From the IMG/VR virus record IMGVR_UViG_3300021137_000070, positions 1 to 28,444 of that record: a DNA stretch of 28,444 nucleotides; one strand, given 5' to 3'. Below the pieces are notes generated by a model that had not been told where the DNA came from, did not search any database, and worked only from the letters and a program-made list of their open reading frames with translations. The stretch's first letter is position 1, and every line of letters starts with the position of its first letter. The DNA comes from a virus. Of the stretch, positions 6,698-24,523 are shown in pieces. The translations under genes and the position numbers were made by a program.

Positions 6698-6908
6698 TTT
6701 TTTCTATTTTAATCCATCCATCATCGGAGAACTCAAATGTTTTTCTGTTCTTTACACTAACATAAGTGTTATGAAATTCTACTCCAATCCAATCAGCAAG
6801 AGAAACGTTATCTAATCCTTGAACTCTTAAAAATAAAACATTTGCTGCTTCAACTACTTCTGCTTCTAATCCAAATTTCTCTTTGATTCTTTTTTGGATG
6901 TCAATCAC
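6657..6908 (-). CDS. Small hypothetical protein (83 aa), GTG start
   Basis: I do not recognise this protein. It is 83 residues, with an N-terminal amphipathic stretch (IDIQKRIKEKFGLEAE), a middle that could form beta strands (FLRVQGL, DWIGVEFHNTYVSV), and a Ser/Thr/Asn tail. The start codon is GTG at 6906-6908, overlapping the TGA of the gene upstream (GTGA), which points to translational coupling. The 3' end overlaps the endolysin start by 41 bases. Position just before the lysis genes is the only hint of a role. Confidence 0.6.
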   Translation of the reverse strand: MIDIQKRIKEKFGLEAEVVEAANVLFLRVQGLDNVSLADWIGVEFHNTYVSVKNRKTFEFSDDGWIKIEKNDNSRTTSSNTAT

Positions 6909-7291
6909 TTAGGTGCCTTTCTGGTGGCCATTCTCATTAAAATAGGACTACGTTTCTTTTTTCTATTAACAGCAGTAGCACTTGCTGGATCGGTAGAAGT
7001 TGCAACACCAGTTACATTAGTTGGTCCGGTAGCAACTGCACCACCACCACCACCACCTATGCCATCTTCTTTAATATTTGATATTGGTTCATTACCCATA
7101 CGGAATGGTTTAGTTTGTTTGGGTACAGGTTTACCAGATTTAGTTTTAGTGAAGTCATATTTGGAAGCTTTCTTTTCCAATTCAGATTCTTCTGGTACAC
7201 AATTGGGTACCATACGGTTACCTTTTTTCTTCATGCCTTTGGCTGTATATCCTGTCCAGCAAGCTTCAGTATATTGTTTAAATGATTTCAT
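6905..7291 (-). CDS. Small basic protein with T4 CTS-like N-terminus
   Basis: The 128-residue protein begins MKSFKQYTEA, which resembles the capsid-targeting peptide of T4 internal proteins (cleavage expected after E9). It continues with CWTGYTAKGMKKKGNRMVPNC (11-31), a motif I remember from many small proteins of T4-like marine phages. The middle has a run of six glycines coded by a GGT-type repeat, then a low-complexity Ala/Thr/Ser stretch and a basic end (NRKKKRSP). It is likely disordered. AAGGA precedes the ATG, and the start overlaps the stop of the upstream gene (ATGA). Role unknown; a head-associated or DNA-contacting peptide is a fair guess. Confidence 0.65.
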   Translation of the reverse strand: MKSFKQYTEACWTGYTAKGMKKKGNRMVPNCVPEESELEKKASKYDFTKTKSGKPVPKQTKPFRMGNEPISNIKEDGIGGGGGGAVATGPTNVTGVATSTDPASATAVNRKKKRSPILMRMATRKAPK

Positions 7292-11210: not shown

Positions 11211-13136
11211 TTATTGTGCTCCCTTTTTCTTTTTCTTTTTGATTATTTCAATACCAATATTTCTATTTTGATCTTTATAGGTATCCATACCTTCTTTATT
11301 ACCAGAACCGCCTAGTACTCCACCGACACCGGATTCAACATCGTTTTGGAATCCATTAAACTCTTTAATTGTTTTTCTAAAATATTTAAAATTCTTTTTC
11401 TTCGGCTCATAAGCTGAACTCAAAGGATTTGGCGACATAACACTACTTCCTGGTAATGCTGAACTGGAAGGTTGTGCGTTACTATATTCCTGACTTTCAC
11501 CCATGCCTTGTCCTAGACCGGCGCCTGCTGCAGCACCTTGACCGCCTGCACGGGTATCATAACTCTGTCCTACTCCGTCTGGTCTACCTACACGACCAGC
11601 GCTTAATGAAGTATCACCACGCTTTAACTTTTTGTTTTTGTCGTTGTCTTTTTGGAAGTTCGGCTCTTTGGGGACTGGACTGATTTTGAGTGTGGGCTGC
11701 GCTTCTTCGTATGCGCCGCTCCAAGATCCGCCCGTGACTGAGCTGGTTGTTTTTTTCCTTGGTCCCGTGTCGCCTTTGATTGAATCTTGGCCGCTGACGA
11801 GGGAGCCGGAGTTGTCTGGCTTAATGTCGGCTGGACCTTTGGCTGATCTAAAGTTGGGGTTGTATTTACCAACGGTTTTAGTCTGAATAGACTTAGAATC
11901 TTTTTTAACATTATCTTCCTTAAATAGTGAGGCAAATCTTTCGTTAATATCTACTTTATTGTTTCTTGTAAACCAATCATCGGCAATCTCATTAATTGCT
12001 CTAGAATCTAGAAAAAGTTTTGTTGTGAGGTATATTTCAGTAATATCTTCTTCTTTGGACTCTATTCTACCAGTATTATCAAACTCAATAAAGTTAGTGA
12101 ATGCCTCGGTGAAATATTTAGTGTTTTCTTGTGCTTTCACCCATTTTTCTTGTCTTACCGACTCAACCATCATTCTGGACAATAGAGAATTTCTTTCTTG
12201 GCTGGCTTCGTTTGTGGTATTAACAAAAATCATCAAGGTTTCGTAACCTAATTCTTCAAGTTCTTCTCTGATATAAGAAATACGAGCAACATCATCAGCA
12301 GGACCATTAATAATCAATGGACCACGATTCCTGAGACCTTCTTTGCGGAAGTCACTAGATTTTTCTGATAACCTTTGTTTATCCGATAGGTAGTCATAGG
12401 CCTGAACTAGGTTGAGTTCTACAATTTTAGACTCAGCGATGGCTTCACGAATGATAATGTCTTTACCTGAACCAGGTCCGCCAGTCACAAAGATGGCTCT
12501 AAACTGACCACGGTTTACGGATTCATTTAATCCCATACCAGCACGAACATCGTGCATAAGTTCTTTGGCATGGTTATCGGACACATGGGCAGGAACACCT
12601 TGGCGGAATGATGAAAAATCTTTGTTTTTTGCGTGTTCTCTCATTTTGGTACCAGACATACCTTCTGCACCTTCGGCATCAGGATCACGGTGACCAGCGG
12701 ATACTACTGAAATTTTCTTAAAATTATAGTGTCCGTGGCGACCTTCTACACCATTATATTTGTGTAACAAATCGTGCATCTCTTTAACCCGGTCAGAACC
12801 AGCAACAACAGTCAATTTATCATGGCCTTTTGCGTGTAATTTTGCTGCATGGTGTAATATTGTTGGTTCTTCTTTTGAAGATTTTTCAAAATGAGTTCCT
12901 GGTGAATACCGTTTAAGGTGTTTGACTTTTTGTTCACCACTTAATGGATTTTTTTTGGAATCTTGTGAATGAGAAACAATAACGACATGATTTGCACCTT
13001 GTTTTTCTGCTTCACCACGAACCTTATCAATTAATTTAAGGTGTCCGGTGGTTGGAGGATTCATACGACCAAAAGCCATTACCACAGGCTTCTTTGTGGT
13101 TTCTTTTTCTTCGTATAATTCTAAAAATGACTTCAT
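11211..13136 (-). CDS. Nucleotidyltransferase-kinase fusion with CTS-like N-terminus
   Basis: The 641-residue protein has three parts. After MKSFLELYEEKE comes a cytidylyltransferase/NMNAT-like domain (17-200) with FGRMNPPTTGH (22-32; the HxGH-type motif is TTGH) and MSGTKMRE (160-167, the ISxTxxR-type motif). Next is a P-loop domain with GGPGSGKD (219-226), where Asp replaces the usual Ser/Thr after the lysine; it could be a nucleoside or polynucleotide kinase. The last 240 residues are low-complexity (Gly, Ser, Pro, Lys), probably disordered, ending KKKKKKGAQ. Similar fusions are annotated as cytidyltransferase in marine T4-like phages, as I recall. The start forms a TAATG overlap with the stop of the nuclease-like gene. 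A GC-rich tract lies at about 11640-11840. The substrate is unknown: NAD, a CDP-linked compound or nucleic-acid ends are all possible. Confidence 0.75.
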   Translation of the reverse strand: MKSFLELYEEKETTKKPVVMAFGRMNPPTTGHLKLIDKVRGEAEKQGANHVVIVSHSQDSKKNPLSGEQKVKHLKRYSPGTHFEKSSKEEPTILHHAAKLHAKGHDKLTVVAGSDRVKEMHDLLHKYNGVEGRHGHYNFKKISVVSAGHRDPDAEGAEGMSGTKMREHAKNKDFSSFRQGVPAHVSDNHAKELMHDVRAGMGLNESVNRGQFRAIFVTGGPGSGKDIIIREAIAESKIVELNLVQAYDYLSDKQRLSEKSSDFRKEGLRNRGPLIINGPADDVARISYIREELEELGYETLMIFVNTTNEASQERNSLLSRMMVESVRQEKWVKAQENTKYFTEAFTNFIEFDNTGRIESKEEDITEIYLTTKLFLDSRAINEIADDWFTRNNKVDINERFASLFKEDNVKKDSKSIQTKTVGKYNPNFRSAKGPADIKPDNSGSLVSGQDSIKGDTGPRKKTTSSVTGGSWSGAYEEAQPTLKISPVPKEPNFQKDNDKNKKLKRGDTSLSAGRVGRPDGVGQSYDTRAGGQGAAAGAGLGQGMGESQEYSNAQPSSSALPGSSVMSPNPLSSAYEPKKKNFKYFRKTIKEFNGFQNDVESGVGGVLGGSGNKEGMDTYKDQNRNIGIEIIKKKKKKGAQ

Positions 13137-14107
13137 TAATCTCTGTGTCCTAATGTTTTGGCAAAATGTTCTAGATGGTCGTCATTATCTAAATTAACAT
13201 GACTTTTTTCCAAACCTTTTACACCATCTGGATGGAAAGCAATTGTCCTTGCTCTTTTGTTTCCAGCTTGTTTTTCACGAATTATGAATTTACCTTTGCC
13301 TTTGATTGATGGCAGTCCATGATCTGTCACATCTTTATTATTTACTTTATATGTTCCATAACCACTACCCACATGCAAAACATCAACATGGTGGTCTTTT
13401 AGGTAGGATACTGCAGGACTCAAATCTGGATGTTTAAATGTAATTGATTTTGCACGACCAGAAGCAGTAGTTTCAATTTTGTGTTTATCTGGATCCTGAT
13501 GTTTATTCATGTGTTCTAGTAATCCGGCCTTTTCAATTGCGGCCGCATACTTTGGCCTATTTTTTCTTGCTTTATCAGTAATATGCCACCCATTTTCCGG
13601 AGTATGGTTAATGGTTAGTTGTCCCATTGCAGCAGTTGTACCTTCTTTTACTTCACCAGAAATAATATTACCTTTATGGATTTCTTTCTTTCTTTTATTT
13701 TCAATTGGAACATCTGTACCTGCGGTTGAACCAGCATGACTAGCATCAGCAGGTGTTATGCCTGCTTTTTTGAATCTTTCGAATGTAGCAATTTCATATT
13801 TGTGTCCTTCATTCTTAGGAGCTTCGCCAGGCTTACGAATTTTTGAAATCGGAATAACGTGACTTTCTTTTGTATTATCATCAAAAGCATGCACATGAAG
13901 TTTTCCATCTAAACGTTCGGCTTTAGTTAATCGCAAATTTGAACCAGCAGGAACTCCATCATGATTTTTATCTAACACATGAGTAAATTCTTCACTGCCC
14001 AAGTGTGGAGTAATATATTTTTTTTCGTGTTCGAGTGATGCTGGACCACTTGCGGTCATTGTTCCACGACCTTCCGCTTCGGACAACATTTCTAAAAAAC
14101 TTTTCAT
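13136..14107 (-). CDS. PD-(D/E)XK nuclease-like protein with CTS-like N-terminus
   Basis: The 323-residue protein starts MKSFLEMLSEAEG, which fits the T4 internal-protein targeting peptide almost position for position (expected cut after E10, before A11). Residues 103-163 look like a restriction-endonuclease fold core: E105/E110 in a helix (KYEIATFERF), AGSTAGTDV with D132, then GEVK (E152, K154) and GQ at 162-163. D132 and E152-x-K154 would be the metal-binding and catalytic set. The C-terminal part has beta-like segments (VLHVGSGYGTYKV, KFIIREKQAG). The ATG overlaps the stop of the ligase-like gene (ATGA), with GAGGA just upstream. Targets are unknown; if packaged, it could act on host DNA or RNA on entry. 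Family assignment rests on motifs only. Confidence 0.6.
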   Translation of the reverse strand: MKSFLEMLSEAEGRGTMTASGPASLEHEKKYITPHLGSEEFTHVLDKNHDGVPAGSNLRLTKAERLDGKLHVHAFDDNTKESHVIPISKIRKPGEAPKNEGHKYEIATFERFKKAGITPADASHAGSTAGTDVPIENKRKKEIHKGNIISGEVKEGTTAAMGQLTINHTPENGWHITDKARKNRPKYAAAIEKAGLLEHMNKHQDPDKHKIETTASGRAKSITFKHPDLSPAVSYLKDHHVDVLHVGSGYGTYKVNNKDVTDHGLPSIKGKGKFIIREKQAGNKRARTIAFHPDGVKGLEKSHVNLDNDDHLEHFAKTLGHRD

Positions 14108-15282
14108 TTCCTCACCTTCAACAAGTTAGCTTTAGCAAATTCAGCACGATTTACCAATTTAGTTGGTTCTCCGGCATGATTCACAACAAAACCTTCTGGT
14201 CCGGTTTTCTTGTCGTCAATATGATGTTCTAGACCACCTTCGTGTTGTGCTAGTGTGGATACTAATAGATTTTTTGCCTGTTGTAAATGGTGGTGCATCG
14301 CCAAAAGCTTATCATAGTGTTGTTTATTAGCATCAATATGCTGCAAGTGACTTTGGCTTTCAGTATTCTTACGACTTTGAGCTATTGGAGTTTTTAACTT
14401 TGCTCCAGCCTTTTTATATTGATTTGCAATATGTTTTTTTAGGCCTTCGGCTGTAGGAACTTCATCAGTCCTAACAGTATGATTAATATATGTTGCCAAA
14501 TGACCAGCTTCACCACGATGTGGCTCTGTAGCTTTATACATTGTCATTTTGTTGTCGTTATGTATTTTTTGAGCACTAGCCAAGTGTTTTTCAAATTCTT
14601 TCTGGTCACTTTCAGAATAGTGAATTTGTTTTGTATCATGGTTAGCTGACTTGTGCCACACATCAGTATGATGAGCAAAATTATGCAAGTCTGGATGCGG
14701 ATCGGCAGCCATTGATTCCAAATCTTTGCCGTGATATTGCTGATGGATTATGATACCAAGTTTGGATGCTTTAATTTTATCGGCATCAGTACCTTTGGCA
14801 GTATATGTAATGGTATTAGGAGTAAATGAAATTCCTTTTTTGGATTCTTTCTTATCACCCTCGGAATACATCAAATCTCCTTGGTATACACCACTCTTGG
14901 GTGCAATTTTCTTGAGGTGATTCAAAGATGCATGGAGTTTTTCTACAAGACCGGGTGCGTGACCATGGTTCTTTATAATGTCTTTGTGGTTATAATTAAG
15001 TTTTGGGTTTTTATTGAAAGCAGATTTTGATGCAACAAAGAATTTGCCTGTTTCAGGATGGTGTCCAAATACAACGGCAGGAGAGCCATCATATTTCATT
15101 GTTAGTGCAGAACTATGCCCACCAGACTTAATATGTTCGTGTGCTTGATTTAAAGCATTATATGCGTGTTCAAACCCTTTGGTACCATGCAACAATGGAC
15201 GATCTTCAGCATGGTGTATGTGCTTAAGTTTGCCATCGCCGGCCTCTGATTCTTCTTTTAGAAAAGTTAAAAACGACTGCAT
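14104..15282 (-). CDS. Ligase-superfamily-like nucleotidyltransferase with CTS-like N-terminus
   Basis: The 392-residue protein begins MQSFLTFLKEESEAG, a CTS-like peptide (possible cut after E10). It has the marks of a covalent nucleotidyltransferase: motif I KYDG (K63 as the nucleotide-bound lysine, in LTMKYDGSPAV), GVYQGDLMYS (131-140) in the place of motif III, KLGIIIHQQYHG (174-185) resembling motif IIIa, and EGFVV (363-367, motif IV) followed by TKLVNR (374-379, motif V-like). The gap between the motif I half and motif IV is long and His-rich, so there is a large insertion. I recall the same chain as phage family DUF6267; a ligase link is my inference. I chose ATG 15280-15282 over an upstream GTG because AGAAGGA precedes it. 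It is the first gene behind a perfect late promoter. Confidence 0.65.
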   Translation of the reverse strand: MQSFLTFLKEESEAGDGKLKHIHHAEDRPLLHGTKGFEHAYNALNQAHEHIKSGGHSSALTMKYDGSPAVVFGHHPETGKFFVASKSAFNKNPKLNYNHKDIIKNHGHAPGLVEKLHASLNHLKKIAPKSGVYQGDLMYSEGDKKESKKGISFTPNTITYTAKGTDADKIKASKLGIIIHQQYHGKDLESMAADPHPDLHNFAHHTDVWHKSANHDTKQIHYSESDQKEFEKHLASAQKIHNDNKMTMYKATEPHRGEAGHLATYINHTVRTDEVPTAEGLKKHIANQYKKAGAKLKTPIAQSRKNTESQSHLQHIDANKQHYDKLLAMHHHLQQAKNLLVSTLAQHEGGLEHHIDDKKTGPEGFVVNHAGEPTKLVNRAEFAKANLLKVRK

Positions 15283-15404: not shown

Positions 15405-16112
15405 TTAAAACTTGGTTCCTTCAAAATCCAACCAATAAGTTGCCATTTTTCCTTTGCCTTCCATGAGATAGAATGGTAAAGTATGGACTAAACCTCGACT
15501 GGAGTTATAGTATAACATAGTTTTAGGTGCCCTGTCAAGCGAAAACGCAAAATGTGTTGTTCCTGTGTCACCACCAATGAATATTTCGGCATCCATAATG
15601 TGGTATATGTTTTCCATAAAGTCGGTACTATTAATCCAATCTTCACCAAAATAAGCAGGTTCTTTCGTACATATTAACTTAATGTACTCATCATATTCTT
15701 TGGCATTATATTTTTCAATTAGATGTTGAAGTAAATTTCTTGGCCAATTACGATATTGATTATATGGAGCATCAAAGAGTGGAAATATAACAATCTTTTT
15801 CCTCATTTCTTTTGTGTTTGGTACTTTAACCAAATCACCAGATATATCACGAAAATCCCAAAGATTAACTCTTTCCCATTGTAAACTGTCCTGACTTTGA
15901 TGTTCGGAGAACCAATCGGTTTGTTTCTTTAAGAATTCAAAAAACTTCTGACAATATTCTTCCGAACTGATTGCACCCGGCATCATGTGAAATTTGATGT
16001 GTGGTTGATTGTTTACTTTTCTTAAATGTTCAATAACATTACCGACAGCAATTAAATCACCATTGCGAATACAATCACCAAAACAGCCTTTATGAATGTT
16101 TAAAATGGTCAA
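15405..16112 (-). CDS. GT9/heptosyltransferase-like glycosyltransferase, probable TTG start
   Basis: The protein is GT-B-like. The N-terminal MTILNIHKGCFGDCIRNGDL matches the Gly-Asp loop start of this family, and the C-terminal IFIGGDTGTTHFAFSLDRAP is the classic sugar-nucleotide site of ADP-heptose:LPS heptosyltransferases (GGDTGxxHxA). An ATG at 16134-16136 would add eight residues, but a TTG at 16110-16112 has GGAG seven bases upstream and gives the natural family start, so I prefer TTG (235 residues). It overlaps the end of the next upstream gene by 23 bases. It is the last gene of the ten-gene sugar block. Acceptor unknown; LPS core or a virion glycan are both possible. Confidence 0.72.
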   Translation of the reverse strand: MTILNIHKGCFGDCIRNGDLIAVGNVIEHLRKVNNQPHIKFHMMPGAISSEEYCQKFFEFLKKQTDWFSEHQSQDSLQWERVNLWDFRDISGDLVKVPNTKEMRKKIVIFPLFDAPYNQYRNWPRNLLQHLIEKYNAKEYDEYIKLICTKEPAYFGEDWINSTDFMENIYHIMDAEIFIGGDTGTTHFAFSLDRAPKTMLYYNSSRGLVHTLPFYLMEGKGKMATYWLDFEGTKF

Positions 16113-16851
16113 GTTTTTTCTCCAAATCTTTTGCATGAACCAGTTTTGCTTGGCGGTTCAAATAAAAATGCTTCTCAAATACTTTATCAATATTTTTGCC
16201 ATTATCCCAAGACACATCATTACCAACTCTAAACTCAGGTTTCCAATCTTCTGCTTTCCAAACACAATACAACGGAACATTGCAAAGGTCTGCTAACATA
16301 CCAATACCGGTAAAGTTTGTGATAAATGGTTTCTTTAGATTCTTAATAATGTAAGCATTTTCCAACATTGGTCTATCATAATCAATGAAATTATATTTCT
16401 CAAGGTGAGATAGAATATGAGTTTCTCTGCGGTCATCAATTTCACCTACAGCCCATCGGTCACCAACATAATATTCATCTTTCACATCAATATCATATTC
16501 CGGTGTTTTTACTGTGAAATCATCATCTACTTCAAATAACATCCTGTAGTGGTCATTCAACCAATTTTCATAACGACAAGTTTCGATTGGTCGATATGGG
16601 TCATTCTTATCTTCCCGCATTGGCCAAGAACTTAATTGTATCATTTCACCGTACATGAATACTTCATCGTCAAATACAACATCGGTAAATAGGTCTTGAT
16701 ACATCAAAAATTCTTTGATGCCTTTAAACTTACGCATACCACTTTTAATGATTAACTCATACTTACCAATATATTTACTAACACCAGACATTACTGGCAT
16801 TCCATTTAAAAAGTCGCCTAGATTAGCAGTTCCACTAAGATATATTCTCAT
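16090..16851 (-). CDS. Divergent GT9-like glycosyltransferase
   Basis: The 253-residue protein starts MRIYLSGTANLGDFLNGMPV, which resembles the Gly-Asp loop of GT9 enzymes. The end of its second half has KKPFITNFTGIGMLADLCNV, parallel to the sugar-nucleotide site but with the usual Asp-Ser/Thr-Gly replaced by Asn-Phe-Thr-Gly. It may be a divergent or partly inactive partner of the GT9-like protein encoded next to it. The start overlaps the stop of the HtrL-like gene (ATGA). Confidence in a glycosyltransferase role is moderate. Confidence 0.55.
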   Translation of the reverse strand: MRIYLSGTANLGDFLNGMPVMSGVSKYIGKYELIIKSGMRKFKGIKEFLMYQDLFTDVVFDDEVFMYGEMIQLSSWPMREDKNDPYRPIETCRYENWLNDHYRMLFEVDDDFTVKTPEYDIDVKDEYYVGDRWAVGEIDDRRETHILSHLEKYNFIDYDRPMLENAYIIKNLKKPFITNFTGIGMLADLCNVPLYCVWKAEDWKPEFRVGNDVSWDNGKNIDKVFEKHFYLNRQAKLVHAKDLEKKLDHFKHS

Positions 16852-17672
16852 TTTACTGTATCATTATAATTGTTAAACAAAACAAACGAATCATGACCTA
16901 ATTGGTGGTCAGGAATGATGTTCAGATTAAACATTTCTGGTTTCTTCAATGAAGCCATCAACCACAAGGTTTGGTCATCATCAATCAAATTCTTTGCTTG
17001 TAATTCTTCCATACTTTCACAAATCAAGTTATTCACTTCAGGCCACAGATTCTTGTGACCAACTTGTTTGGCGCCCAAAATATAAACTGTATTATTAAAG
17101 ATTACATCTTCGATTGTTTTATCTTTTGGAAATTCACGATAGCCAAATAATTGGAATTTATCTTCACCAAAATTATATGTCCACTTTTTACTTGGTGGAA
17201 TTTTATCTTGTGTACGACAATATCCAAAATCAATCTGTGCAACATAATCATTGGTGATTAGATTTGCTTCTAATGCCCATTTAACAAAGAATGATTTTAG
17301 AAACATCAGGTGTACATAATTAGCGTTCCAATATTCCGGATTAATCTGTTGTGAAGGACTTACTTTTCTTTGGAACTCTGTTGTTCTTTGAATGTCATAA
17401 ATCTTTTTCTTCTCACCGTGGAACATTGAAAGATAATCCATAGGTACAATCTTAGTCTTATCTTCTTTACCTTTACGCAAAGCAGCAACTCGTTCAACAA
17501 AATCTGGATGTGTAAAGATAACCATTTCATTATCTAATTGAGCCATATAACTGAATCGCTCAAAGTAAGTATCTACGGTACGATGCAGATAATGTGGAAA
17601 TCCTTTTTCTGGAGTCCAGTCGCCTCGACCCATATCAAAGAAGAATGTTACAATACTAATATCATTATTCAT
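16848..17672 (-). CDS. HtrL/YibB-like glycosyltransferase
   Basis: The 274-residue protein starts ISIVTFFFDMGRGDW, followed by a YFERFSYMAQLDNEMVIFT stretch, AQIDFGYCR (a possible acidic metal site), VYILGAK and DDDQTLWLMA. This order is that of the HtrL/YibB family (also WlaTC), which sits in LPS and capsule loci of Gram-negative bacteria and is thought to transfer sugars. It starts in an ATGA overlap with the epimerase-like gene and ends in an ATGA overlap with the GT9-like gene. The acceptor and sugar cannot be read from sequence. Confidence 0.75.
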   Translation of the reverse strand: MNNDISIVTFFFDMGRGDWTPEKGFPHYLHRTVDTYFERFSYMAQLDNEMVIFTHPDFVERVAALRKGKEDKTKIVPMDYLSMFHGEKKKIYDIQRTTEFQRKVSPSQQINPEYWNANYVHLMFLKSFFVKWALEANLITNDYVAQIDFGYCRTQDKIPPSKKWTYNFGEDKFQLFGYREFPKDKTIEDVIFNNTVYILGAKQVGHKNLWPEVNNLICESMEELQAKNLIDDDQTLWLMASLKKPEMFNLNIIPDHQLGHDSFVLFNNYNDTVK

Positions 17673-18442
17673 AATTTTTCACCAAGTTTTTTAATATATT
17701 TTCTCTGAAAGATAGGCAATTCAATATCCAATGTTTTCAATAATTTTCTATTGTCCAAAATAAATTGGTCTTTTATTTGACCAGATTCAATAAATTTACC
17801 AGATTCATATCCTTCAATCAAAGCTCTCGCAACTTCACCAATCTCTGTTCCGTAACTGGAACTTAAATTATATATTCCTGTAGGTTTCTTCTCTACAATT
17901 TTATTCAATACTTTACATACAGATTTAATTGAAATAAAATCTCGTTTAGATTTACCGCTAATTGTATATACAATTTCATCATTATGTTTTAATTGATTCA
18001 TGCAGAAACCCATAAAAGAATTTCTGCCGTATTCAAAACCGTAAATATTGGATGCTCTTAATATTGTATGAGAACCTCCCAAATCTACTATTTTTCTTTC
18101 GGATGTTGCTTTGTTATCTCCATAATAATCGTTGGCCTCAAGTTTGGATTCTTCATTTAAAATTTGCAAATCATCACAAGTACCATAAACTTTTCTGGTA
18201 CTCATCATAATATAATGGCATTTATTTGCAGCTGCCAAAATGGCTACTTGATAATCCAAATCATTTCGTTGTTTATAATCTTCAATTTTAAATTCGGGAG
18301 TAATTGCGCAATTCAATATAGTATTATACTTGGAAAAATCTACTTTGTCAACATCGGAATAAGAAATAATATCCACGTTTTTGGTAGCATGATAAAAATG
18401 TTTACCAATAAAGCTATTCTTACCAATAATTAATGTTTTCAT
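17669..18442 (-). CDS. NAD-dependent epimerase/dehydratase-like protein (SDR)
   Basis: The 257-residue protein is an extended short-chain dehydrogenase. It has a nucleotide loop LIIGKNSFIGKHF at the start, STRKVYG in the active-site strand, and YGDNK as the Y-x3-K catalytic pair. TILRASNIYG and KRDFISIKSVC also match sugar epimerases/reductases. It would oxidise, epimerise or reduce a nucleotide sugar for the neighbouring transferases. I chose the ATG at 18440-18442 because it overlaps the stop of the upstream gene (ATGA); a start two codons earlier is possible. It is shorter than typical epimerases (about 310-340), so the C-terminal substrate domain is reduced. Confidence 0.75.
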   Translation of the reverse strand: MKTLIIGKNSFIGKHFYHATKNVDIISYSDVDKVDFSKYNTILNCAITPEFKIEDYKQRNDLDYQVAILAAANKCHYIMMSTRKVYGTCDDLQILNEESKLEANDYYGDNKATSERKIVDLGGSHTILRASNIYGFEYGRNSFMGFCMNQLKHNDEIVYTISGKSKRDFISIKSVCKVLNKIVEKKPTGIYNLSSSYGTEIGEVARALIEGYESGKFIESGQIKDQFILDNRKLLKTLDIELPIFQRKYIKKLGEKL

Positions 18443-19167
18443 GTCCAATAATATTTCTTATAGTTATTCACAATTTCAATGTGACTAGGTTGATCATTTG
18501 CAAATTTATCATAATCGTAACCATCATTTGTATGGTGGTGTGAATCCGTCATGTAAGAATTAACATCATAATCTTTTGCACACAACATATAATAAACTAC
18601 CATGTAACAGTCCATATAACCAAGCGGGTTGTATTGTTGTTGGAAAGTATCATGGTTCAATTTAAACCATTCAATTACTCTATCATAGTTATCTAAGAAG
18701 GTCGATACCTTAAAGATGGATCCTCCACCGCAACCATATTGATTTGTGAGTGGTTTTTTACCAGAAAATTCCGTAATGCTGTCTATAATATTTTTAGGAA
18801 TAATATTGCCAACTGTAATATTGTGGCCTGCCATTTCCCAACTATCATCTACTGTAATATTCTTTTTAATCCAAACATCATCTTCCATCATCATTATATG
18901 TGAAGTATTACACTTTAGGCAAGCATAACGGAATCGTTCAAACCATAATAATATTTTTTCTAGATTATAACTAGGATAACCTACTTTTTTGGTATAAAAA
19001 CGATAGTCGCAATTATATGAAAATGCAATCTCAGATAAATTGTCAGCTGCGTCTGAGGCTAAAAAATAATAAGCATCAGGATAATATATACGAACATTAT
19101 CTACCATTTTTAATGTTGATAGTTTTTTACCTGCTGAAGCAAGATGGCAAAACGATATACTAGTCAT
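18439..19167 (-). CDS. GT-A-like glycosyltransferase
   Basis: The 242-residue protein has an N-terminal SISFCHLASAGKKLSTLKMV, an ordered alpha/beta first half, and HIMMMEDDVWI, an acidic D-x-D-like motif that binds the metal and sugar nucleotide in GT-A enzymes. YGCGGGSIFK in the second half is a typical acceptor-loop glycine motif. I cannot name a specific family. The start overlaps the methyltransferase gene upstream by 8 bases, and the stop overlaps the epimerase start. It is part of the ten-gene sugar block. Confidence 0.62.
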   Translation of the reverse strand: MTSISFCHLASAGKKLSTLKMVDNVRIYYPDAYYFLASDAADNLSEIAFSYNCDYRFYTKKVGYPSYNLEKILLWFERFRYACLKCNTSHIMMMEDDVWIKKNITVDDSWEMAGHNITVGNIIPKNIIDSITEFSGKKPLTNQYGCGGGSIFKVSTFLDNYDRVIEWFKLNHDTFQQQYNPLGYMDCYMVVYYMLCAKDYDVNSYMTDSHHHTNDGYDYDKFANDQPSHIEIVNNYKKYYWT

Positions 19168-19726
19168 ATCTTACCACAAACATAATAGAATCGGACATGC
19201 CAGAAATTTCACGAGCATCAATCACTTCATAACTCATATTGTTTGGTACTATCATTTTATATTCTTCGGTCCACTCCATTTGAGCAATATCTTCAATAAC
19301 AAAAACACCGCCGGAGTTTAATTTTGGTAAATAAAGATTTAATGACTGTAAATGACTTTCTTTGGTGTGCGGACCATCATCAATGATAATATCAAAACTA
19401 GGTAAAAAACTGGAAAACTGTTCTTTATATCCGTCAGCATAAAAAATCTTTATTCTAGGAAAAGATTCACAATTTTTTATAGCACCAAAATCAAACGGAT
19501 CAACACCACAAATTTCAGCATTTTTAAAATATTCATGAAATACTGCTAATCCTCCGCCACGGTGGACTCCAATTTCCAATAACTTAATTTCTTTGTCTTT
19601 ATACTTTAAAAATTCTTTATCATAAAATGCTGTACAATAACGATGATTAAACTCTTTATCTGTACCAAATTCATAATGTGTATCATTACGCCAATTGTTT
19701 TCTACCATAATATCAACTAAAGTCAT
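19160..19726 (-). CDS. SAM-dependent methyltransferase, class I
   Basis: The 188-residue protein has the SAM loop LLEIGVHRGGG (49-59), a following ICGVDPF strand end, FDIIIDDGPHTKESHLQSLN as motif IV, and SGGVFVIEDI. IDDGPH followed by a helix and GG-V-x-V-IED is the pattern of methyltransferases that act on sugars or macrolides (Methyltransf_24 or cephalosporin-hydroxylase-like). In this block it probably methylates a sugar. The start forms a TAATG overlap with the epimerase gene upstream. Confidence 0.75.
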   Translation of the reverse strand: MTLVDIMVENNWRNDTHYEFGTDKEFNHRYCTAFYDKEFLKYKDKEIKLLEIGVHRGGGLAVFHEYFKNAEICGVDPFDFGAIKNCESFPRIKIFYADGYKEQFSSFLPSFDIIIDDGPHTKESHLQSLNLYLPKLNSGGVFVIEDIAQMEWTEEYKMIVPNNMSYEVIDAREISGMSDSIMFVVRYD

Positions 19727-20739
19727 TACATTATCCTATCTTTCCATGTTTTTGGTGTTTTATCTGAGATAATTTCAAGTGGGTAAGTATAATCGAAAGG
19801 TTTTGATCCTTTTCGTTTAACATATTCAACAGTTTCTTGAATTGCTTTTTCTAAATTAGTTTTGGTTTCATAGTTCAATAATTTACGAGCTTTATCGGCA
19901 GAACAAGATGCGTGTTTTACTTCTCTTGGTCGGTCAGGCATATGAATTGGTGGCCATATGTTATCTTTTCTCATATCAGTTGCTTCAGCGACCAAATAAG
20001 CCAAATGAGCAACAGTAATTGTACCTTCATCAGGACCAATGTTAATTGTTTCGCTTACGATATTAGGATCTAATGCCATTTTTTCTAAACAACTAATACA
20101 ATCGCCAATATAAGAAAAACAACGAGTTTGTAAACCATCACCATAAATGATTGAAGGTTTATTTTGCAAATTACGATTAATCATAATACTCATAACATTA
20201 CGGAATGGGTCATCGTAACGTTGCCGTGGTCCTACGATATTATGTGGAATAGCAATGTTCCATTCCATACCATGAGTTTCGCAAAGCATTTTTAAAATAT
20301 CTTCACTAGCAACTTTGGCCACTGCGTATGGATCTTCAGGCATTGGAGTCATATCTTCCGTATATGGAGTTTGTTGATTGCCATAACGAGCCATACTAGA
20401 ACAGAAAACAAATCTTTTTACTTTATTTTGAATTGCAGCTGAGATTGTTGATACACTAGCTTCAAAAATATTTCGTGTAATGAAACTAGGAGAGAATACA
20501 GATAATCCTTCGTGTGCCGTTGCAGCACAATGAATTACAATATCACAACCTTCCATAACATAAGTCATCTTTTCATTATCACAACAATCTATAATATAGA
20601 GTTTTGCTTTTTTAGGAACATTATCACGATAACCACCAATTAAGGTGTCGTTACCAATGACCTCATGTCCTAATTCTAGCATTCTGTCGGCAAGGTGGCT
20701 ACCTAGAAACCCTGCGATGCCTGTAATAAAGATTTTCAT
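19726..20739 (-). CDS. NAD-dependent nucleotide-sugar epimerase
   Basis: The 337-residue protein is a full-length extended SDR of the UDP-glucose 4-epimerase type. It has TGIAGFLGSHLADRML at the start (NAD loop), HCAATAHEG, CSSMARYG in the active-site strand and YAVAK (Y-x3-K). NIGPDEGTITV and the RPREVKHASCSADKARKLL stretch near the end are also typical. It would interconvert a nucleotide sugar to feed the transferases in the block. AGGA precedes the ATG at 20737-20739, one base after the stop of the upstream gene. Confidence 0.86.
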   Translation of the reverse strand: MKIFITGIAGFLGSHLADRMLELGHEVIGNDTLIGGYRDNVPKKAKLYIIDCCDNEKMTYVMEGCDIVIHCAATAHEGLSVFSPSFITRNIFEASVSTISAAIQNKVKRFVFCSSMARYGNQQTPYTEDMTPMPEDPYAVAKVASEDILKMLCETHGMEWNIAIPHNIVGPRQRYDDPFRNVMSIMINRNLQNKPSIIYGDGLQTRCFSYIGDCISCLEKMALDPNIVSETINIGPDEGTITVAHLAYLVAEATDMRKDNIWPPIHMPDRPREVKHASCSADKARKLLNYETKTNLEKAIQETVEYVKRKGSKPFDYTYPLEIISDKTPKTWKDRIM

Positions 20740-21579
20740 TTAAGTCCTGTAAATAAAATATTGTGATTCATCTTCTTGGCCATATTTCTCTTGGACAAAC
20801 TTCTTTAAAACTGGTACTCTATCATATTGATGTACAATTGAGTAAGGTTTACCTTGGTATTTTACTAATCCATCTTCAAATGTAGGTTCATCACACAATA
20901 AGTTTGGTCTAAAATGTTGAATCTTAGATGGATCCATAATTGTACCTAACTCAGCCGCCCAATCAAATGTAGTGTATCGAATATCAAGGAATGGTTGTGT
21001 ATTCATCAATACATTGAATACTGCTTGGTCTACAATGGGAATAGGTCTATTAATTGCGTTAGTAAATATGTGGAAAATAACATCTTTAACATATTCAAAT
21101 TCACCACCAAAAGTGCCAACATTTAATATTTGATTATTTTTAAATTGTTCATACACATAAGGACCATAAGTTTGCATTAGATTCTCATTGCCCCAAGGTT
21201 CATCACAATATGCCAAACCTTCAGAAGCAACAATTAATTCAATCTGATTTTCTTCTATTTGTACAAATGGGTCTTTTTGGAAGTAAACATCTTTTACGTC
21301 CGTGGTGACAACATAACGATATTCATTTTGATGATTATGTAGATAATCATAGATCGATAAGAATCGTAAAACATGAATTGGTATACCTTGAACCTGCAAC
21401 ATTGGAACAACTTGAACACCTTGTTCTACTAACCAATCTAATGTTTCTTTAGATGCATTACCATAAACTAAAACAACATCATTTGATCCAGCAACTTCTT
21501 TTGCTGATAGAACCCAAGGTTTTAGTTGATTGATGCCGTAGTTTGTGAAACCACCAATGATTAAGTTTTTTGACGCCAT
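20740..21579 (-). CDS. Glycosyltransferase, GT-A-like with D-x-x-D motif
   Basis: The 279-residue protein starts KNLIIGGFTNYG, has YRYVVTTDVKDVYFQKDPF (an acidic TDVKDV metal site), then NQILNVGTFGGE and PIVDQAVFNVL. The end, YSIVHQYDRVP, is a conserved His-Gln patch also seen in plant-type nucleotide-sugar transferases. I do not assign a CAZy family. GGAG lies seven bases before the ATG at 21577-21579, and the start overlaps the GT2 gene by 19 bases. Confidence 0.72.
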   Translation of the reverse strand: MASKNLIIGGFTNYGINQLKPWVLSAKEVAGSNDVVLVYGNASKETLDWLVEQGVQVVPMLQVQGIPIHVLRFLSIYDYLHNHQNEYRYVVTTDVKDVYFQKDPFVQIEENQIELIVASEGLAYCDEPWGNENLMQTYGPYVYEQFKNNQILNVGTFGGEFEYVKDVIFHIFTNAINRPIPIVDQAVFNVLMNTQPFLDIRYTTFDWAAELGTIMDPSKIQHFRPNLLCDEPTFEDGLVKYQGKPYSIVHQYDRVPVLKKFVQEKYGQEDESQYFIYRT

Positions 21580-22283
21580 GGGAAAACTCCATTATATTTT
21601 TTATTCATCACTTCATTACCATTAATAAAGAAGTCCGCTGTTACAGAACCTTCACCACCATCAACACGATAATGGGTTGTATATTCGTTTGTACAATCCC
21701 ACTTTGGAAAGTATTGAGTTACTGCACTAAGAAACACTCTATCTTGACCCCAACCACCATGCCAAGCACTCGCTAATTTTACAGCAATTGATGTCTTTAG
21801 GCAATAGGAGTTTGTATCTATGTGATTAATACCGTGATAAGTTTGCCATTTACCAAGAGATTCACAATCATCGTTACAGATAAAATCACCGTCTTTATTG
21901 TGTACTTGTCGCAGAGAATAACACCAATCTAAATTACGTTTTTCAATGGTATCAACACAAGTTTGTACATGGTTAGGTGCCAACCAATTATCTTGGTCAA
22001 GATACATTACATATTCAGTATCAACAAGATGTGTAAAGGCTGCATACACACGGTGACCATAAAATCCTTTGGCACCAACATTGATTGGTAAACCACAAAA
22101 TATAATTTTTTTGTAATTTGGATGTTTTTCAAATTGTTTAATGTGGTTTTTTACAGCATAAACAAATTCTGGACCATCACAAACAATATAACACTTAGTA
22201 TCGTAGGTTTGTTCTAGTACGGATTTAATTGATTCGTGTACTGGTGCAGCACCAGTAGTTGGTATAATTACGGTTGCAGACAT
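21561..22283 (-). CDS. GT2-family glycosyltransferase
   Basis: The 240-residue protein has the GT2 opening SATVIIPTTGAAPVHESIKS, VLEQTYDTK, and YVMYLDQDNW with the D-x-D (DQD) metal motif, then a C-terminal GGWGQDRVFLSAV near the catalytic base. The fold is a single GT-A domain without a membrane segment, so it acts in the cytoplasm on a sugar nucleotide. GGAG precedes the ATG at 22281-22283. Confidence 0.8.
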   Translation of the reverse strand: MSATVIIPTTGAAPVHESIKSVLEQTYDTKCYIVCDGPEFVYAVKNHIKQFEKHPNYKKIIFCGLPINVGAKGFYGHRVYAAFTHLVDTEYVMYLDQDNWLAPNHVQTCVDTIEKRNLDWCYSLRQVHNKDGDFICNDDCESLGKWQTYHGINHIDTNSYCLKTSIAVKLASAWHGGWGQDRVFLSAVTQYFPKWDCTNEYTTHYRVDGGEGSVTADFFINGNEVMNKKYNGVFPWRQKT

Positions 22284-22284
22284 A

Positions 22285-22878
22285 TTATAATATTCTCCAA
22301 AATAATTGATATCCTACTTCACAAGGCTCTATTCCTAGTTTGGACATATAGTCGTTAATAATTTTTCCTTTACCCTCAAGTCTATCATTTTCAACCCAAT
22401 TATCATCAACTCCAATTAAAGCTCCGGATTTTAATGATGGCATTATCGTAGATAACTCATATAAATGATGTAACGCACTACGGAAGAGAACTTCAGGATT
22501 ATTACGGGGAGCATCAAAACTATCTAGATATAAAAAATCAATTTTCTTTTCTTGTTCTAGTAAAATTTTGTTTAGTTGTTTTAGTTGTGTAATACTATCA
22601 CCTAAAGTAACAATACTATTTTCGGAAGTCATTTTACTTTTGGAATAATTTACCGATTCTTCTGCAAGGTCTACTGTCCAAAAATAGCCATTGTATTCTT
22701 TTATATATTTGTCAAATAACAAACTACTTTGGCCATCACCTTCATAATTGTCTAATTGACGAGCGCAGCCAGTTTCTACTATGAATGGATCTTCTATTGT
22801 TTTGAGGTAATCAAAGATATAATCAAATCCAGTTTGTCTATGTCCAAGTCTATCTCTCACATCATTATAAAATTGCAT
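22285..22878 (-). CDS. SAM-dependent methyltransferase-like protein
   Basis: The 197-residue protein has FIVETGCAR as the SAM loop, FWTVDLAEESV as the strand that ends at the ribose acid, and IDFLYLDSFD as motif IV, then SGALIGVDDNW. This is the class I methyltransferase order. It is the first gene of the sugar block and follows a small conserved phage gene by 2 bases, so it may be read with the replication genes. Substrate unknown; a sugar hydroxyl or lipid-linked glycan is possible. Confidence 0.7.
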   Translation of the reverse strand: MQFYNDVRDRLGHRQTGFDYIFDYLKTIEDPFIVETGCARQLDNYEGDGQSSLLFDKYIKEYNGYFWTVDLAEESVNYSKSKMTSENSIVTLGDSITQLKQLNKILLEQEKKIDFLYLDSFDAPRNNPEVLFRSALHHLYELSTIMPSLKSGALIGVDDNWVENDRLEGKGKIINDYMSKLGIEPCEVGYQLFWRIL

Positions 22879-22880
22879 AA

Positions 22881-23159
22881 TTAATCTTTCGTCAGTTTTA
22901 GTATCTTCTCAATTTGTGCTTCGATTATTGGTTTACGATTAGGCCAATATATATATTCTTTATCTCCGGTCGAATGTAACTTGGTGAGGAATGGAATAAT
23001 CATTTTTTCCAATTCGGCCAATCGAGCTTTATAATCATCTGCCGTTGCAGCAGTTTTATTGATTACTGAGTTGTATTCTTCTTCGGATACGGCAGAGAAT
23101 CCAAAATCATCGGAGTTCTCATACTGCTTTGCAAGTTTATCAAAATCAACGAGTGCCAT
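22881..23159 (-). CDS. Small conserved T4-like phage protein
   Basis: The 92-residue protein has FDKLAKQYENSDDFGFSAVS at the start, a helical middle and KEYIYWPNRKPIIEAQIEKIL near the end. I remember the YIYWPNR motif from small proteins in T4-like marine phages; no function is known. It starts with its ATG overlapping the stop of the 454-residue gene by one base (TAATG), with AAAGGT upstream. Confidence 0.65.
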   Translation of the reverse strand: MALVDFDKLAKQYENSDDFGFSAVSEEEYNSVINKTAATADDYKARLAELEKMIIPFLTKLHSTGDKEYIYWPNRKPIIEAQIEKILKLTKD

Positions 23160-24523
23160 TAGTATACCTTTCCAAATGGACCATATTTTTTACCTTTTTT
23201 CTGAGCAAAGAAAACAATATCAGTTAATAATTTACTCAATTCTTTGTCGGATAATGATAATAATTCAGAAATTAAATCTAATTGCATTAATTTAGACACC
23301 GCAGATCCTAGATCGGATTTATAAACCATTTTTAAATTTGTTTTAAATTCTTTATCTGAAGCGATTGAGGAGCTGAATTTTACTCCTGCTTTGTTTTTAG
23401 CTTTATTAAATTTATCAACAATCTTATCTATTTCTTTATCATCAATTTTTCTTAGGTATTGATTGTGATCATTTTTAAAATTAACTCCATAATCTCCAAA
23501 GATTTTATCAACATCTTTTACTCCAGCTTGTCCTAATTTCGCCAGAGGTTTACCAACTTGGCCGGGTTCATATTTTAAATTTTTAAGATGCCGAACATCC
23601 GTTGACATTATATCAAATTTATATTTTACATTATAATAATTATCTGTTATAAAAATTTCAGTATGTTTTGCGTGAAAACTCATAGGATTGTCAGGATAAT
23701 ATTTTGTTGAAACACCAACATCTTCCATTATTGATTTAAAAAGTTCAATGTTTCCAACAGGTACAGGTTTAATATTTAATTTGCAAACAATTTCAGAAAT
23801 TTCACAACGCAAATCTTTAATGATATCAAATTCTTTCATTGTTTTTTCTTCGTTTGCTAAAACATTAACAGGAACATATATTGCATTTTGATCCGTTTGT
23901 TTTAATGATACTCCAATAACAATTGATTTTCTATAATACCCTCTTAATAAAGAATTTAATTCTTGAATTTTCTCATCTTTTTCTCTAATGTTATTAGGAA
24001 GTCTATTACCATATTTAATTGTTTCTTCCAATTTTTTTTCTAAATCGGGTTCTTTTTTCGTATCAACTATCCACAAATCAGCAGGATTCCAAGTATTGAT
24101 ATTTCCAGATCCTCCTGCTTTCCTAAACATTTTATCAACAAATTCCATAAAGTTTTCTCCTCGATCAAACCGAGCCTCTTTAAATTGTGGAGCTGAATAT
24201 TTGTCCAATAGTGCTTTTTGTTGGCCAAAATAGGACAGTAACCATTTATCTGGAATAGGATCACTATCTTTTTTTATGTTAAATGTTGGATCAAAGATTT
24301 TTTGTAATTCGGAATATTTTTTATCCAATTTAACATTCATCCAATCAGGCCATTTTAACTTTTTTTTTGGATTGGAATTCTCATAGGCCGATATAACTTC
24401 ACCTTGTTCTTTTTTACTAATGAATTGATTGGTGGGCATTAATTTGGTATAATTTACGTTGTCCTTCAATGCTCTCTGAAAGATCCATTTTGAACCATTT
24501 TCTTGATTATCTGTTTTAGCCAT
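23159..24523 (-). CDS. Phage protein with restriction-endonuclease-like motifs
   Basis: The 454-residue protein has TWNPADLWIV (144-153) and, about 50 residues on, IVIGVSLKQT (201-210). NPAD-x-W followed by a beta strand with SLK resembles the D...(E/S)xK core of some PD-(D/E)XK phage nucleases, with Ser in place of the acidic residue. E124 and E127/E128-like acids in the helix before it (GENFMEFVDKMF) could supply the missing ligand. The C-terminal half is lysine-rich and helical with no known motif. It lies after the DruA-like gene in the replication block. A TATAAATA is present 88 bp upstream inside the neighbouring gene. The ribosome site is weak. Confidence 0.5.
   Translation of the reverse strand: MAKTDNQENGSKWIFQRALKDNVNYTKLMPTNQFISKKEQGEVISAYENSNPKKKLKWPDWMNVKLDKKYSELQKIFDPTFNIKKDSDPIPDKWLLSYFGQQKALLDKYSAPQFKEARFDRGENFMEFVDKMFRKAGGSGNINTWNPADLWIVDTKKEPDLEKKLEETIKYGNRLPNNIREKDEKIQELNSLLRGYYRKSIVIGVSLKQTDQNAIYVPVNVLANEEKTMKEFDIIKDLRCEISEIVCKLNIKPVPVGNIELFKSIMEDVGVSTKYYPDNPMSFHAKHTEIFITDNYYNVKYKFDIMSTDVRHLKNLKYEPGQVGKPLAKLGQAGVKDVDKIFGDYGVNFKNDHNQYLRKIDDKEIDKIVDKFNKAKNKAGVKFSSSIASDKEFKTNLKMVYKSDLGSAVSKLMQLDLISELLSLSDKELSKLLTDIVFFAQKKGKKYGPFGKVY

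What the first reader, a model, noticed from the sequence alone, without database searches (positions are those of the whole stretch)
14104..15282. Ligase-superfamily motifs in a phage protein of unknown function
KYDG (residues 63-66), a GxYxGDLM strand, a KLGIIIH strand and EGFVV plus TKLVNR at the C-terminus follow the order of motifs I, III, IIIa, IV and V of RNA/DNA ligases and capping enzymes. The spacing between the motif I half and motif IV is stretched by some 170 His-rich residues. If right, this widely shared phage family is an end-sealing or nucleotidyl-transfer enzyme, not just a DUF.
Basis: partly seen in the sequence, partly recalled or inferred. Interest (0 to 1): 0.7.

Follow-up and report, generated by a model that had tools for sequence, protein, structure and literature searches.

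The report
Ligase-fold phage protein with capsid tag
A protein of unknown function carried by most ocean cyanobacterial T4-like viruses and their freshwater relatives is predicted to have the fold and almost all the active-site residues of RNA/DNA ligases, and in this virus it also starts with a short tag like the one phage T4 uses to pack proteins into its head, so it may be an end-joining enzyme injected with the viral DNA.

Summary
Across 97 divergent homologues K63, D65, G66, D136, E363, G364, K375 and R379 never vary. AlphaFold2 models of the window protein (pLDDT 91, pTM 0.89) and of a short, 28%-identical variant (pLDDT 92) both match only polynucleotide ligases among the 50 best PDB entries (best Naegleria Rnl, Z 8.8-8.9; T4 Rnl1, 7.9-8.2). 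Neither stated refutation occurred. Profile comparison with T4 Rnl1/Rnl2 is not significant, there is no OB domain, motif III has D instead of E, and a helical insertion (224-344) is distinctive, so it is a divergent branch of the covalent nucleotidyltransferases, not a member of a named ligase family. The His-richness is peculiar to the window's clade. New here: 87 of 97 distinct N-terminal extensions carry a T4 capsid-targeting-like start (0.7 expected by shuffling), and in phage S-CREM2 the same motif marks virion proteins (5 of 6, p = 0.004). The gene sits in an operon with an NMNAT-like/P-loop protein; NMNAT-like relatives were found in virions. Substrate and activity are untested.

The parts
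14104..15282 (-). DUF6267 protein, 392 aa: predicted covalent lysine nucleotidyltransferase (ligase fold)
   Evidence: PF19782 E 5e-94, phrog_455 E 7.5e-90, AF2 + VIA-align
15253..15282 (-). residues 1-10 MQSFLTFLKE, T4 capsid-targeting-sequence-like N-terminus (T4 IPII/IPIII: MKTYQEFIAE)
   Evidence: residues 1-17 have pLDDT under 50 in the model
15085..15096 (-). motif I K63-Y-D65-G66 (predicted nucleotidyl-lysine K63)
   Evidence: K, D, G invariant in 97/97
15010..15027 (-). motif Ia-like K86SAFNK
   Evidence: K86 96/97, R in one
14869..14892 (-). motif III strand GVYQGD136LM (Asp in place of the usual Glu)
   Evidence: D136 97/97; strand 132-140
14743..14763 (-). motif IIIa strand KLGIIIH180
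   Evidence: H180 97/97; strand 175-184
14251..14613 (-). all-helical insertion, residues 224-344, with invariant N267 and K337 and nearly invariant R271
   Evidence: shortened in 296-aa variants
14182..14196 (-). motif IV E363GFVV
   Evidence: E363, G364 97/97
14146..14163 (-). motif V TK375LVNR379
   Evidence: K375, R379 97/97
13136..14107 (-). 323-aa ORF, start overlaps the DUF6267 stop (ATGA), capsid-targeting-like start MKSFLEMLSEA; nuclease-like by eye only
   Evidence: no Pfam/PHROG match
11211..13136 (-). 641-aa ORF: capsid-targeting-like start MKSFLELYEE, NMNAT-like nucleotidyltransferase domain plus P-loop domain
   Evidence: PF01467 E 1.4e-7, phrog_3041/395/455
23159..24523 (-). homologue of the gene (T4-GC_533/phrog_1462) that precedes DUF6267 in marine cyanophages; here 8 kb away
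   Evidence: phrog_1462 E 1.3e-53; synteny

Best explanation
The gene encodes a covalent lysine nucleotidyltransferase of the polynucleotide-ligase fold. K63 would attack the alpha-phosphate of ATP (most likely) to form lysyl-AMP, with K86, D136, E363 and K375 binding the nucleotide and metals. The AMP would then go to a 5'-phosphate end and the ends be joined. It resembles RNA ligases (Rnl5, Rnl1, Rnl2) more than DNA ligases: it stops about 13 residues after motif V, with no OB domain, and a helical insertion with invariant Asn/Lys probably serves as the substrate clamp. In this virus and its freshwater and heterotroph-infecting relatives a 10-residue T4-type capsid-targeting start should put it into the prohead, be removed by the prohead protease, and let it be injected with the DNA, together with its operon partner, the NMNAT-like/P-loop protein. 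The most likely job is repair of nucleic-acid ends (RNA such as cut tRNA, or DNA nicks) early in infection. Shown by computation: family, conservation, predicted fold, N-terminal motif, operon. Inferred: catalysis, donor nucleotide, substrate, packaging of this particular protein, biological role.
For: Invariant catalytic residues in 97 divergent members. AF2 pLDDT 91.1, pTM 0.89; all 50 listed PDB matches are ligases, NgrRnl Z 8.9 over 186 residues at 3.8-4.0 A, TbREL1 8.2, T4 Rnl1 7.9, T4 Rnl2 7.8, DNA ligases about 6.3. Replicated with the 296-aa variant: NgrRnl Z 8.8 over 178 residues, T4 Rnl1 8.2. C-terminal register agrees: E363 lies 27 residues before the aligned end at 390, as E312 does before 339 in NgrRnl (residue names from the mutant titles). 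Capsid-targeting-like start in 154 of 168 extended homologues; 87 of 97 distinct extensions against 0.7 in shuffles. The same motif marks virion proteins in S-CREM2, 5 of 6, Fisher p 0.004 (virion list from PMC10665884). NMNAT-like neighbour 42/42, 37/45 and 22/25 in three clades; P-loop 42/42 and 16/25 in two; DUF6267-NMNAT fusion in S-PM2. NMNAT-like (cytidylyltransferase) proteins detected in virions of S-SM1 (PMC3037559), S-SZBM1 (PMC9146016) and S-CREM2.
Against: No significant sequence or profile match to any ligase: HMMER against Pfam and PDB and hhalign against T4 Rnl1/Rnl2, whose scores lie within the column-shuffled range. Foldseek's own best E to PDB is only 0.016. Motif III has Asp, and motif V lacks the second Lys (K-L-V-N-R). 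Best Z (8.9) is only a little above the level that the tool notes as typical for models without a clear match. DUF6267 itself was not in the displayed virion list of S-SZBM1 or in that of S-CREM2, but the S-SZBM1 copy lacks the N-terminal tag and the S-CREM2 copy is of the short form. Some carriers also have an ordinary DNA or RNA ligase, so it is not simply their substitute.
Confidence: 0.6

Rival explanations
1. It is the missing replicative DNA ligase of cyanophages: a stripped-down nick-sealing enzyme that replaces T4 gp30 for Okazaki fragments.
For: 15 of 18 DUF6267 reference phages have no PF01068 ligase and none has an NAD ligase. The cyanomyovirus review notes that gp30 homologues are missing and may be too distant to detect, and lists S-PM2_138, this family, as an unknown signature gene (PMC2984593). 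The gene lies close to gp41 primase-helicase and MazG in most marine cyanophages examined.
Against: S-CRM01, DLP6 and XG4 have both. No OB domain or motif VI after motif V, which DNA ligases need (established knowledge; model). Structural match is better to RNA ligases. A capsid tag is unexpected for a replication enzyme; host ligase could suffice.
Confidence: 0.15
2. An active nucleotidyltransferase whose acceptor is not a nucleic-acid end: it transfers AMP or another nucleotide to protein or a metabolite, coupled with the NMNAT-like partner in NAD metabolism.
For: Constant pairing and even fusion with an NMNAT-like domain; NMNAT-like proteins in virions are thought to act on NAD+ (PMC10665884).
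Against: Characterised enzymes with this fold and motif set act on polynucleotide 5' ends (established knowledge); all listed structural neighbours are polynucleotide ligases; the NMNAT gene is not found downstream of 32 of 34 short-form members.
Confidence: 0.12
3. A catalytically dead or purely structural relative that kept the fold, for example a nucleic-acid-binding internal head protein.
For: Capsid-targeting-like start; Asp in motif III and loss of the second motif V Lys; operon with relatives of virion proteins.
Against: K63, D65, G66, E363, K375 invariant in 97 of 97, including members without the capsid tag; a dead protein would not be expected to keep them.
Confidence: 0.08
4. The motif resemblance and the fold match are coincidence; DUF6267 is an unrelated fold.
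For: No significant profile-profile score; Foldseek E above 0.01.
Against: Two high-confidence models of proteins 28% identical both return only ligases in 50 of 50 rows, with motifs on the expected strands.
Confidence: 0.05

Closest known systems
Naegleria gruberi RNA ligase / Rnl5 group
   Same: Best structural match for both models (Z 8.8-8.9); NTase domain at the C-terminus with little after motif V; K-x-D motif I (K170, D172) and motif IV E312 in equivalent register
   Different: Rnl5 has an N-terminal OB-type domain that DUF6267 lacks; DUF6267 has a large helical insertion between IIIa and IV, and D instead of E in motif III; no sequence similarity detected
T4 RNA ligase 1 (gp63, RnlA) with PseT kinase-phosphatase
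   Same: Motif order; E363 and K375 align with the EGYV...K motif IV-V of T4 Rnl1 in hhalign (not significant); some members sit beside a P-loop protein matching PHROG polynucleotide kinase
   Different: No significant homology; Rnl1 has a separate C-terminal helical domain, here helices are inserted before motif IV; RnlA is not packaged in the head as far as I know
T4 gp30 and other ATP-dependent DNA ligases
   Same: Same NTase fold (Z about 6.3) and motifs I, III-V
   Different: No OB domain or motif VI; three of 18 carriers tested encode both
T4 internal proteins IPII/IPIII and Alt
   Same: N-terminal MxxFxxFLxE start like MKTYQEFIAE; prohead protease gene present in T4-like relatives
   Different: IPs are small and Alt is an ADP-ribosyltransferase; a ligase-fold cargo has not been described to my knowledge

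Membership tests
DUF6267 (PF19782) | Score above the curated Pfam cut-off over the full model | tested here: met
   316 bits against 27, model positions 2-373 of 376
Covalent nucleotidyltransferase superfamily (ligases, capping enzymes) | NTase-domain fold | tested here: met
   Two AF2 models, 50 of 50 best PDB rows are ligases; prediction, not experiment
Covalent nucleotidyltransferase superfamily (ligases, capping enzymes) | Motif I K-x-D-G with invariant nucleophile Lys | tested here: met
   K63, D65, G66 in 97/97
Covalent nucleotidyltransferase superfamily (ligases, capping enzymes) | Motif III acidic residue (usually Glu) | tested here: inconclusive
   Invariant Asp D136 on the expected strand
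Covalent nucleotidyltransferase superfamily (ligases, capping enzymes) | Motif IV Glu and motif V Lys | tested here: met
   E363, K375 97/97; second Lys of KxK is missing, R379 invariant
Covalent nucleotidyltransferase superfamily (ligases, capping enzymes) | Covalent lysyl-nucleotide intermediate and end sealing | not testable with these tools
   needs protein
Rnl1/Rnl2 RNA ligases | Detectable sequence homology to the family | tested here: not met
   Pfam scan of 97 members lists no ligase family among the 25 most frequent; hhalign to T4 Rnl1/Rnl2 within shuffled range
Rnl5 RNA ligases | N-terminal OB-type accessory domain | tested here: not met
   Residues 1-55 modelled as disorder plus helix only
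Rnl5 RNA ligases | Detectable sequence homology to the family | not tested
   no Rnl5 alignment was built
ATP-dependent DNA ligases | C-terminal OB domain with motif VI | tested here: not met
   Protein ends 13 residues after motif V, in a helix
T4-type capsid-targeted internal proteins | About 10-residue N-terminal targeting sequence with an E at the cleavage position | tested here: met
   MQSFLTFLKE; 87/97 distinct family extensions match, 0.7 expected; T4 reference sequences
T4-type capsid-targeted internal proteins | Protein present and processed in the virion | not testable with these tools
   Only neighbours and untagged homologues are covered by the published virion lists read

The most novel reading that the evidence does not exclude
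A new branch of polynucleotide ligases, without OB domain and with a helical clamp inserted before motif IV, is packed into the phage head by a T4-type targeting sequence and injected together with an NMNAT-like/P-loop partner. It would be a ready-made end-healing and sealing kit that repairs host-inflicted cuts (tRNA or DNA) before any phage gene is expressed. The untagged form would supply the sealing activity that marine cyanophages were thought to lack.
Probability: 0.35. Interest if true: 0.82.

Novelty: new variant of a known kind. Interest (0 to 1): 0.62.

Why it matters
DUF6267 is found in 471 phage records, nearly all T4-like marine cyanophages, where it was filed as a signature gene of unknown function; the same group was noted to lack a recognisable DNA ligase (PMC2984593). 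A ligase-fold assignment turns a common ocean-virus gene of unknown function into a testable enzyme. The capsid-targeting-like start suggests that some T4-like phages inject end-processing enzymes, and gives a simple sequence rule for predicting virion cargo that agreed with one published proteome.

Tried and rejected
Sequence-only proof failed: phmmer/hmmsearch against PDB gave no ligase, Pfam scans of all 97 members showed no ligase family in the 25 listed, hhalign with full and insertion-removed profiles was not better than column-shuffled controls (the removed-insertion profile was the one compared with shuffles). Foldseek alone was weak (E 0.016 and 0.12), although its best ranks were ligases. 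'Missing gp30' as the sole explanation was weakened by co-occurrence with PF01068 ligases in S-CRM01, DLP6, XG4 and two IMG/VR records. 'His-rich' as a functional feature was dropped: it is confined to the window's clade. No paper names DUF6267, PF19782, phrog_455 or T4-GC71.

Full report
What was checked. The finding covers 14104-15282; the gene is on the minus strand, 392 codons from ATG at 15282. All five motifs lie at the stated residues. The protein is Pfam DUF6267 (E 5e-94) and PHROG 455, unknown function. tblastn finds it in 471 phage records, nearly all T4-like cyanophages, with a few pelagiphages, methylotroph phages, Vibrio, Pseudoalteromonas and Stenotrophomonas phages. The window itself is a virus record of 28,444 bases. 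No paper in the library names the family.

Conservation. From five viral-contig scans I built a 97-sequence alignment of representatives. K63, D65, G66, D136, H180, N267, K337, E363, G364, V366, K375 and R379 are invariant and K86 nearly so.

Fold. AlphaFold2 on that alignment gave pLDDT 91.1 and pTM 0.89. Motif I ends strand 60-63, motif III is in strand 132-140, IIIa in 175-184, IV in 364-369, V in 372-376, followed by one helix; residues 224-344 form an all-helical insertion and residues 1-17 have low confidence. VIA-align against PDB listed 50 entries, all polynucleotide ligases: Naegleria RNA ligase Z 8.9 (186 residues, 3.8-4.0 A), TbREL1 8.2, T4 Rnl1 7.9, T4 Rnl2 7.8, Trl1 7.6, DNA ligases about 6.3. 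A second model, of a 296-aa variant 28% identical to the window protein (alignment), gave pLDDT 91.6 and again 50 of 50 ligases, NgrRnl 8.8, T4 Rnl1 8.2. The Z values are moderate and a note of the tool warns that 7-8 is common, but a list made of one superfamily only, twice, is not. In the structural alignments E363 is 27 residues from the aligned end, as NgrRnl E312 is from 339, and 25 from 388, as T4 Rnl1 E227 is from 252; the T4 residue number is from my own knowledge.

What does not fit a named family. HMMER and hhalign do not detect ligases. There is no OB domain on either side, motif III is Asp, motif V has one Lys. I therefore place it in the superfamily by fold and active site, and do not file it under Rnl1, Rnl2, Rnl5 or DNA ligases.

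Neighbourhood. In the window the stop overlaps the start of a 323-aa ORF (ATGA), followed by a 641-aa ORF with an NMNAT-like (PF01467) and a P-loop domain. Among IMG/VR loci with at least 3.5 kb downstream the NMNAT-like gene follows in 42/42 window-like, 37/45 DLP6-like, 22/25 S-CRM01-like and 2/34 short-form loci, and the P-loop domain in 42/42 window-like and 16/25 S-CRM01-like. S-PM2 fuses DUF6267 to the NMNAT-like domain. In HTVC008M the P-loop protein is separate and matches Zeta_toxin (E 3e-13) and PHROG polynucleotide kinase (E 8.5e-8). In most marine cyanophages examined, the gene lies shortly after gp41 and MazG.

Capsid-targeting-like start. The window protein begins MQSFLTFLKE; T4 IPII and IPIII begin MKTYQEFIAE. 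T4's roughly 10-residue targeting sequence directs even foreign proteins into the head, and the gp21 protease trims small N-terminal peptides off the internal proteins (PMC9958956). 154 of 168 homologues with an N-terminal extension match the motif; among distinct extensions 87 of 97 do, against 0.7 in shuffles. In S-CRM01, 5 of 180 genes match (0.35 expected), three of them just downstream of DUF6267, one being the kinase gene annotated PKN8; a later paper says that such kinases were found in S-CRM01 virions. In S-CREM2, with a published virion list, 5 of 6 matching genes are virion proteins, Fisher p = 0.004. Cytidylyltransferase/NMNAT-like proteins were found in virions of S-SM1 (PMC3037559), S-SZBM1 (its start is MRFRQFIIEA) and S-CREM2 (starts MKNFSSFLTEA). 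DUF6267 of S-SZBM1 begins MAKNTHLEH without a tag, that of S-CREM2 is the short form, and neither is in those lists as far as shown (the end of the S-SZBM1 table was cut). So packaging is predicted for the tagged clades only, and the authors of PMC10665884 themselves caution that virion lists can contain contaminants.

Missing ligase question. A review of cyanomyoviruses states that gp30 DNA ligase homologues are not found and may be too distant, and lists S-PM2_138, which the locus tag shows to be this protein, as an unknown signature gene (PMC2984593). Of 18 reference carriers, 15 lack PF01068, all lack PF01653, 17 lack PF09414 and 17 lack PF09511, with T4 as positive control for PF01068, PF09414 and PF09511. 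Three carriers have an ordinary DNA ligase as well, so simple replacement is not the general rule, but in the others DUF6267 is the only recognised ligase-fold candidate.

Judgement. Ligase-fold covalent nucleotidyltransferase with an intact active site: about 0.88. Acts on polynucleotide ends: about 0.65. RNA rather than DNA ends: about 0.5. Packaged in the window's lineage: about 0.65. The overall statement is given 0.6, for its core (ligase-fold enzyme acting on nucleic-acid ends); its detailed steps are inferred.

Noticed in passing
window 13136-14107 and 11211-13136 (-): Both ORFs directly downstream also start with T4 capsid-targeting-like sequences (MKSFLEMLSEA, MKSFLELYEE); the 323-aa one has no Pfam or PHROG match and shows a D...GEVK pattern suggestive of a PD-(D/E)xK nuclease by eye.
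   Followed up: partly
window 6905-7291 (-): Small ORF starting MKSFKQYTEA, a near match to the capsid-targeting start, with a stretch shared by several PHROG families of unknown function.
   Followed up: no
window 23159-24523 (-): Homologue of phrog_1462 (T4-GC_533), which precedes DUF6267 in marine cyanophages, carries W-N-P-A-D-L-W...I-G-V-S-L-K, a PD-(D/E)xK-like pattern by eye; here it is separated from DUF6267 by a cluster of sugar and glycosyltransferase-type genes.
   Followed up: partly
window 15405-22878 (-): Run of nucleotide-sugar epimerase, glycosyltransferase and methyltransferase-like ORFs (by eye) between the replication genes and the DUF6267 operon, perhaps for glycan modification.
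   Followed up: no
L392 7704-10313 (S-CREM2 gp12): The virion-detected 'Cas9-like' protein has an internal capsid-targeting-like stretch LRFASFMAEA about 17 residues in, suggesting either a wrongly annotated start or a longer leader; the Cas9 label itself looks doubtful.
   Followed up: no
BFVD A0A4Y5JUK8 (Pseudomonas phage PA5oct) and others: Distant fold relatives of DUF6267 (12-20% identity) occur in other phages, among them a jumbo phage that also carries the NMNAT-like gene, so the family is probably wider than Pfam DUF6267.
   Followed up: no
L187, L189 (593 aa), L188 (549 aa): Further long DUF6267 ORFs in viral contigs, of the length of the S-PM2 DUF6267-NMNAT fusion.
   Followed up: no
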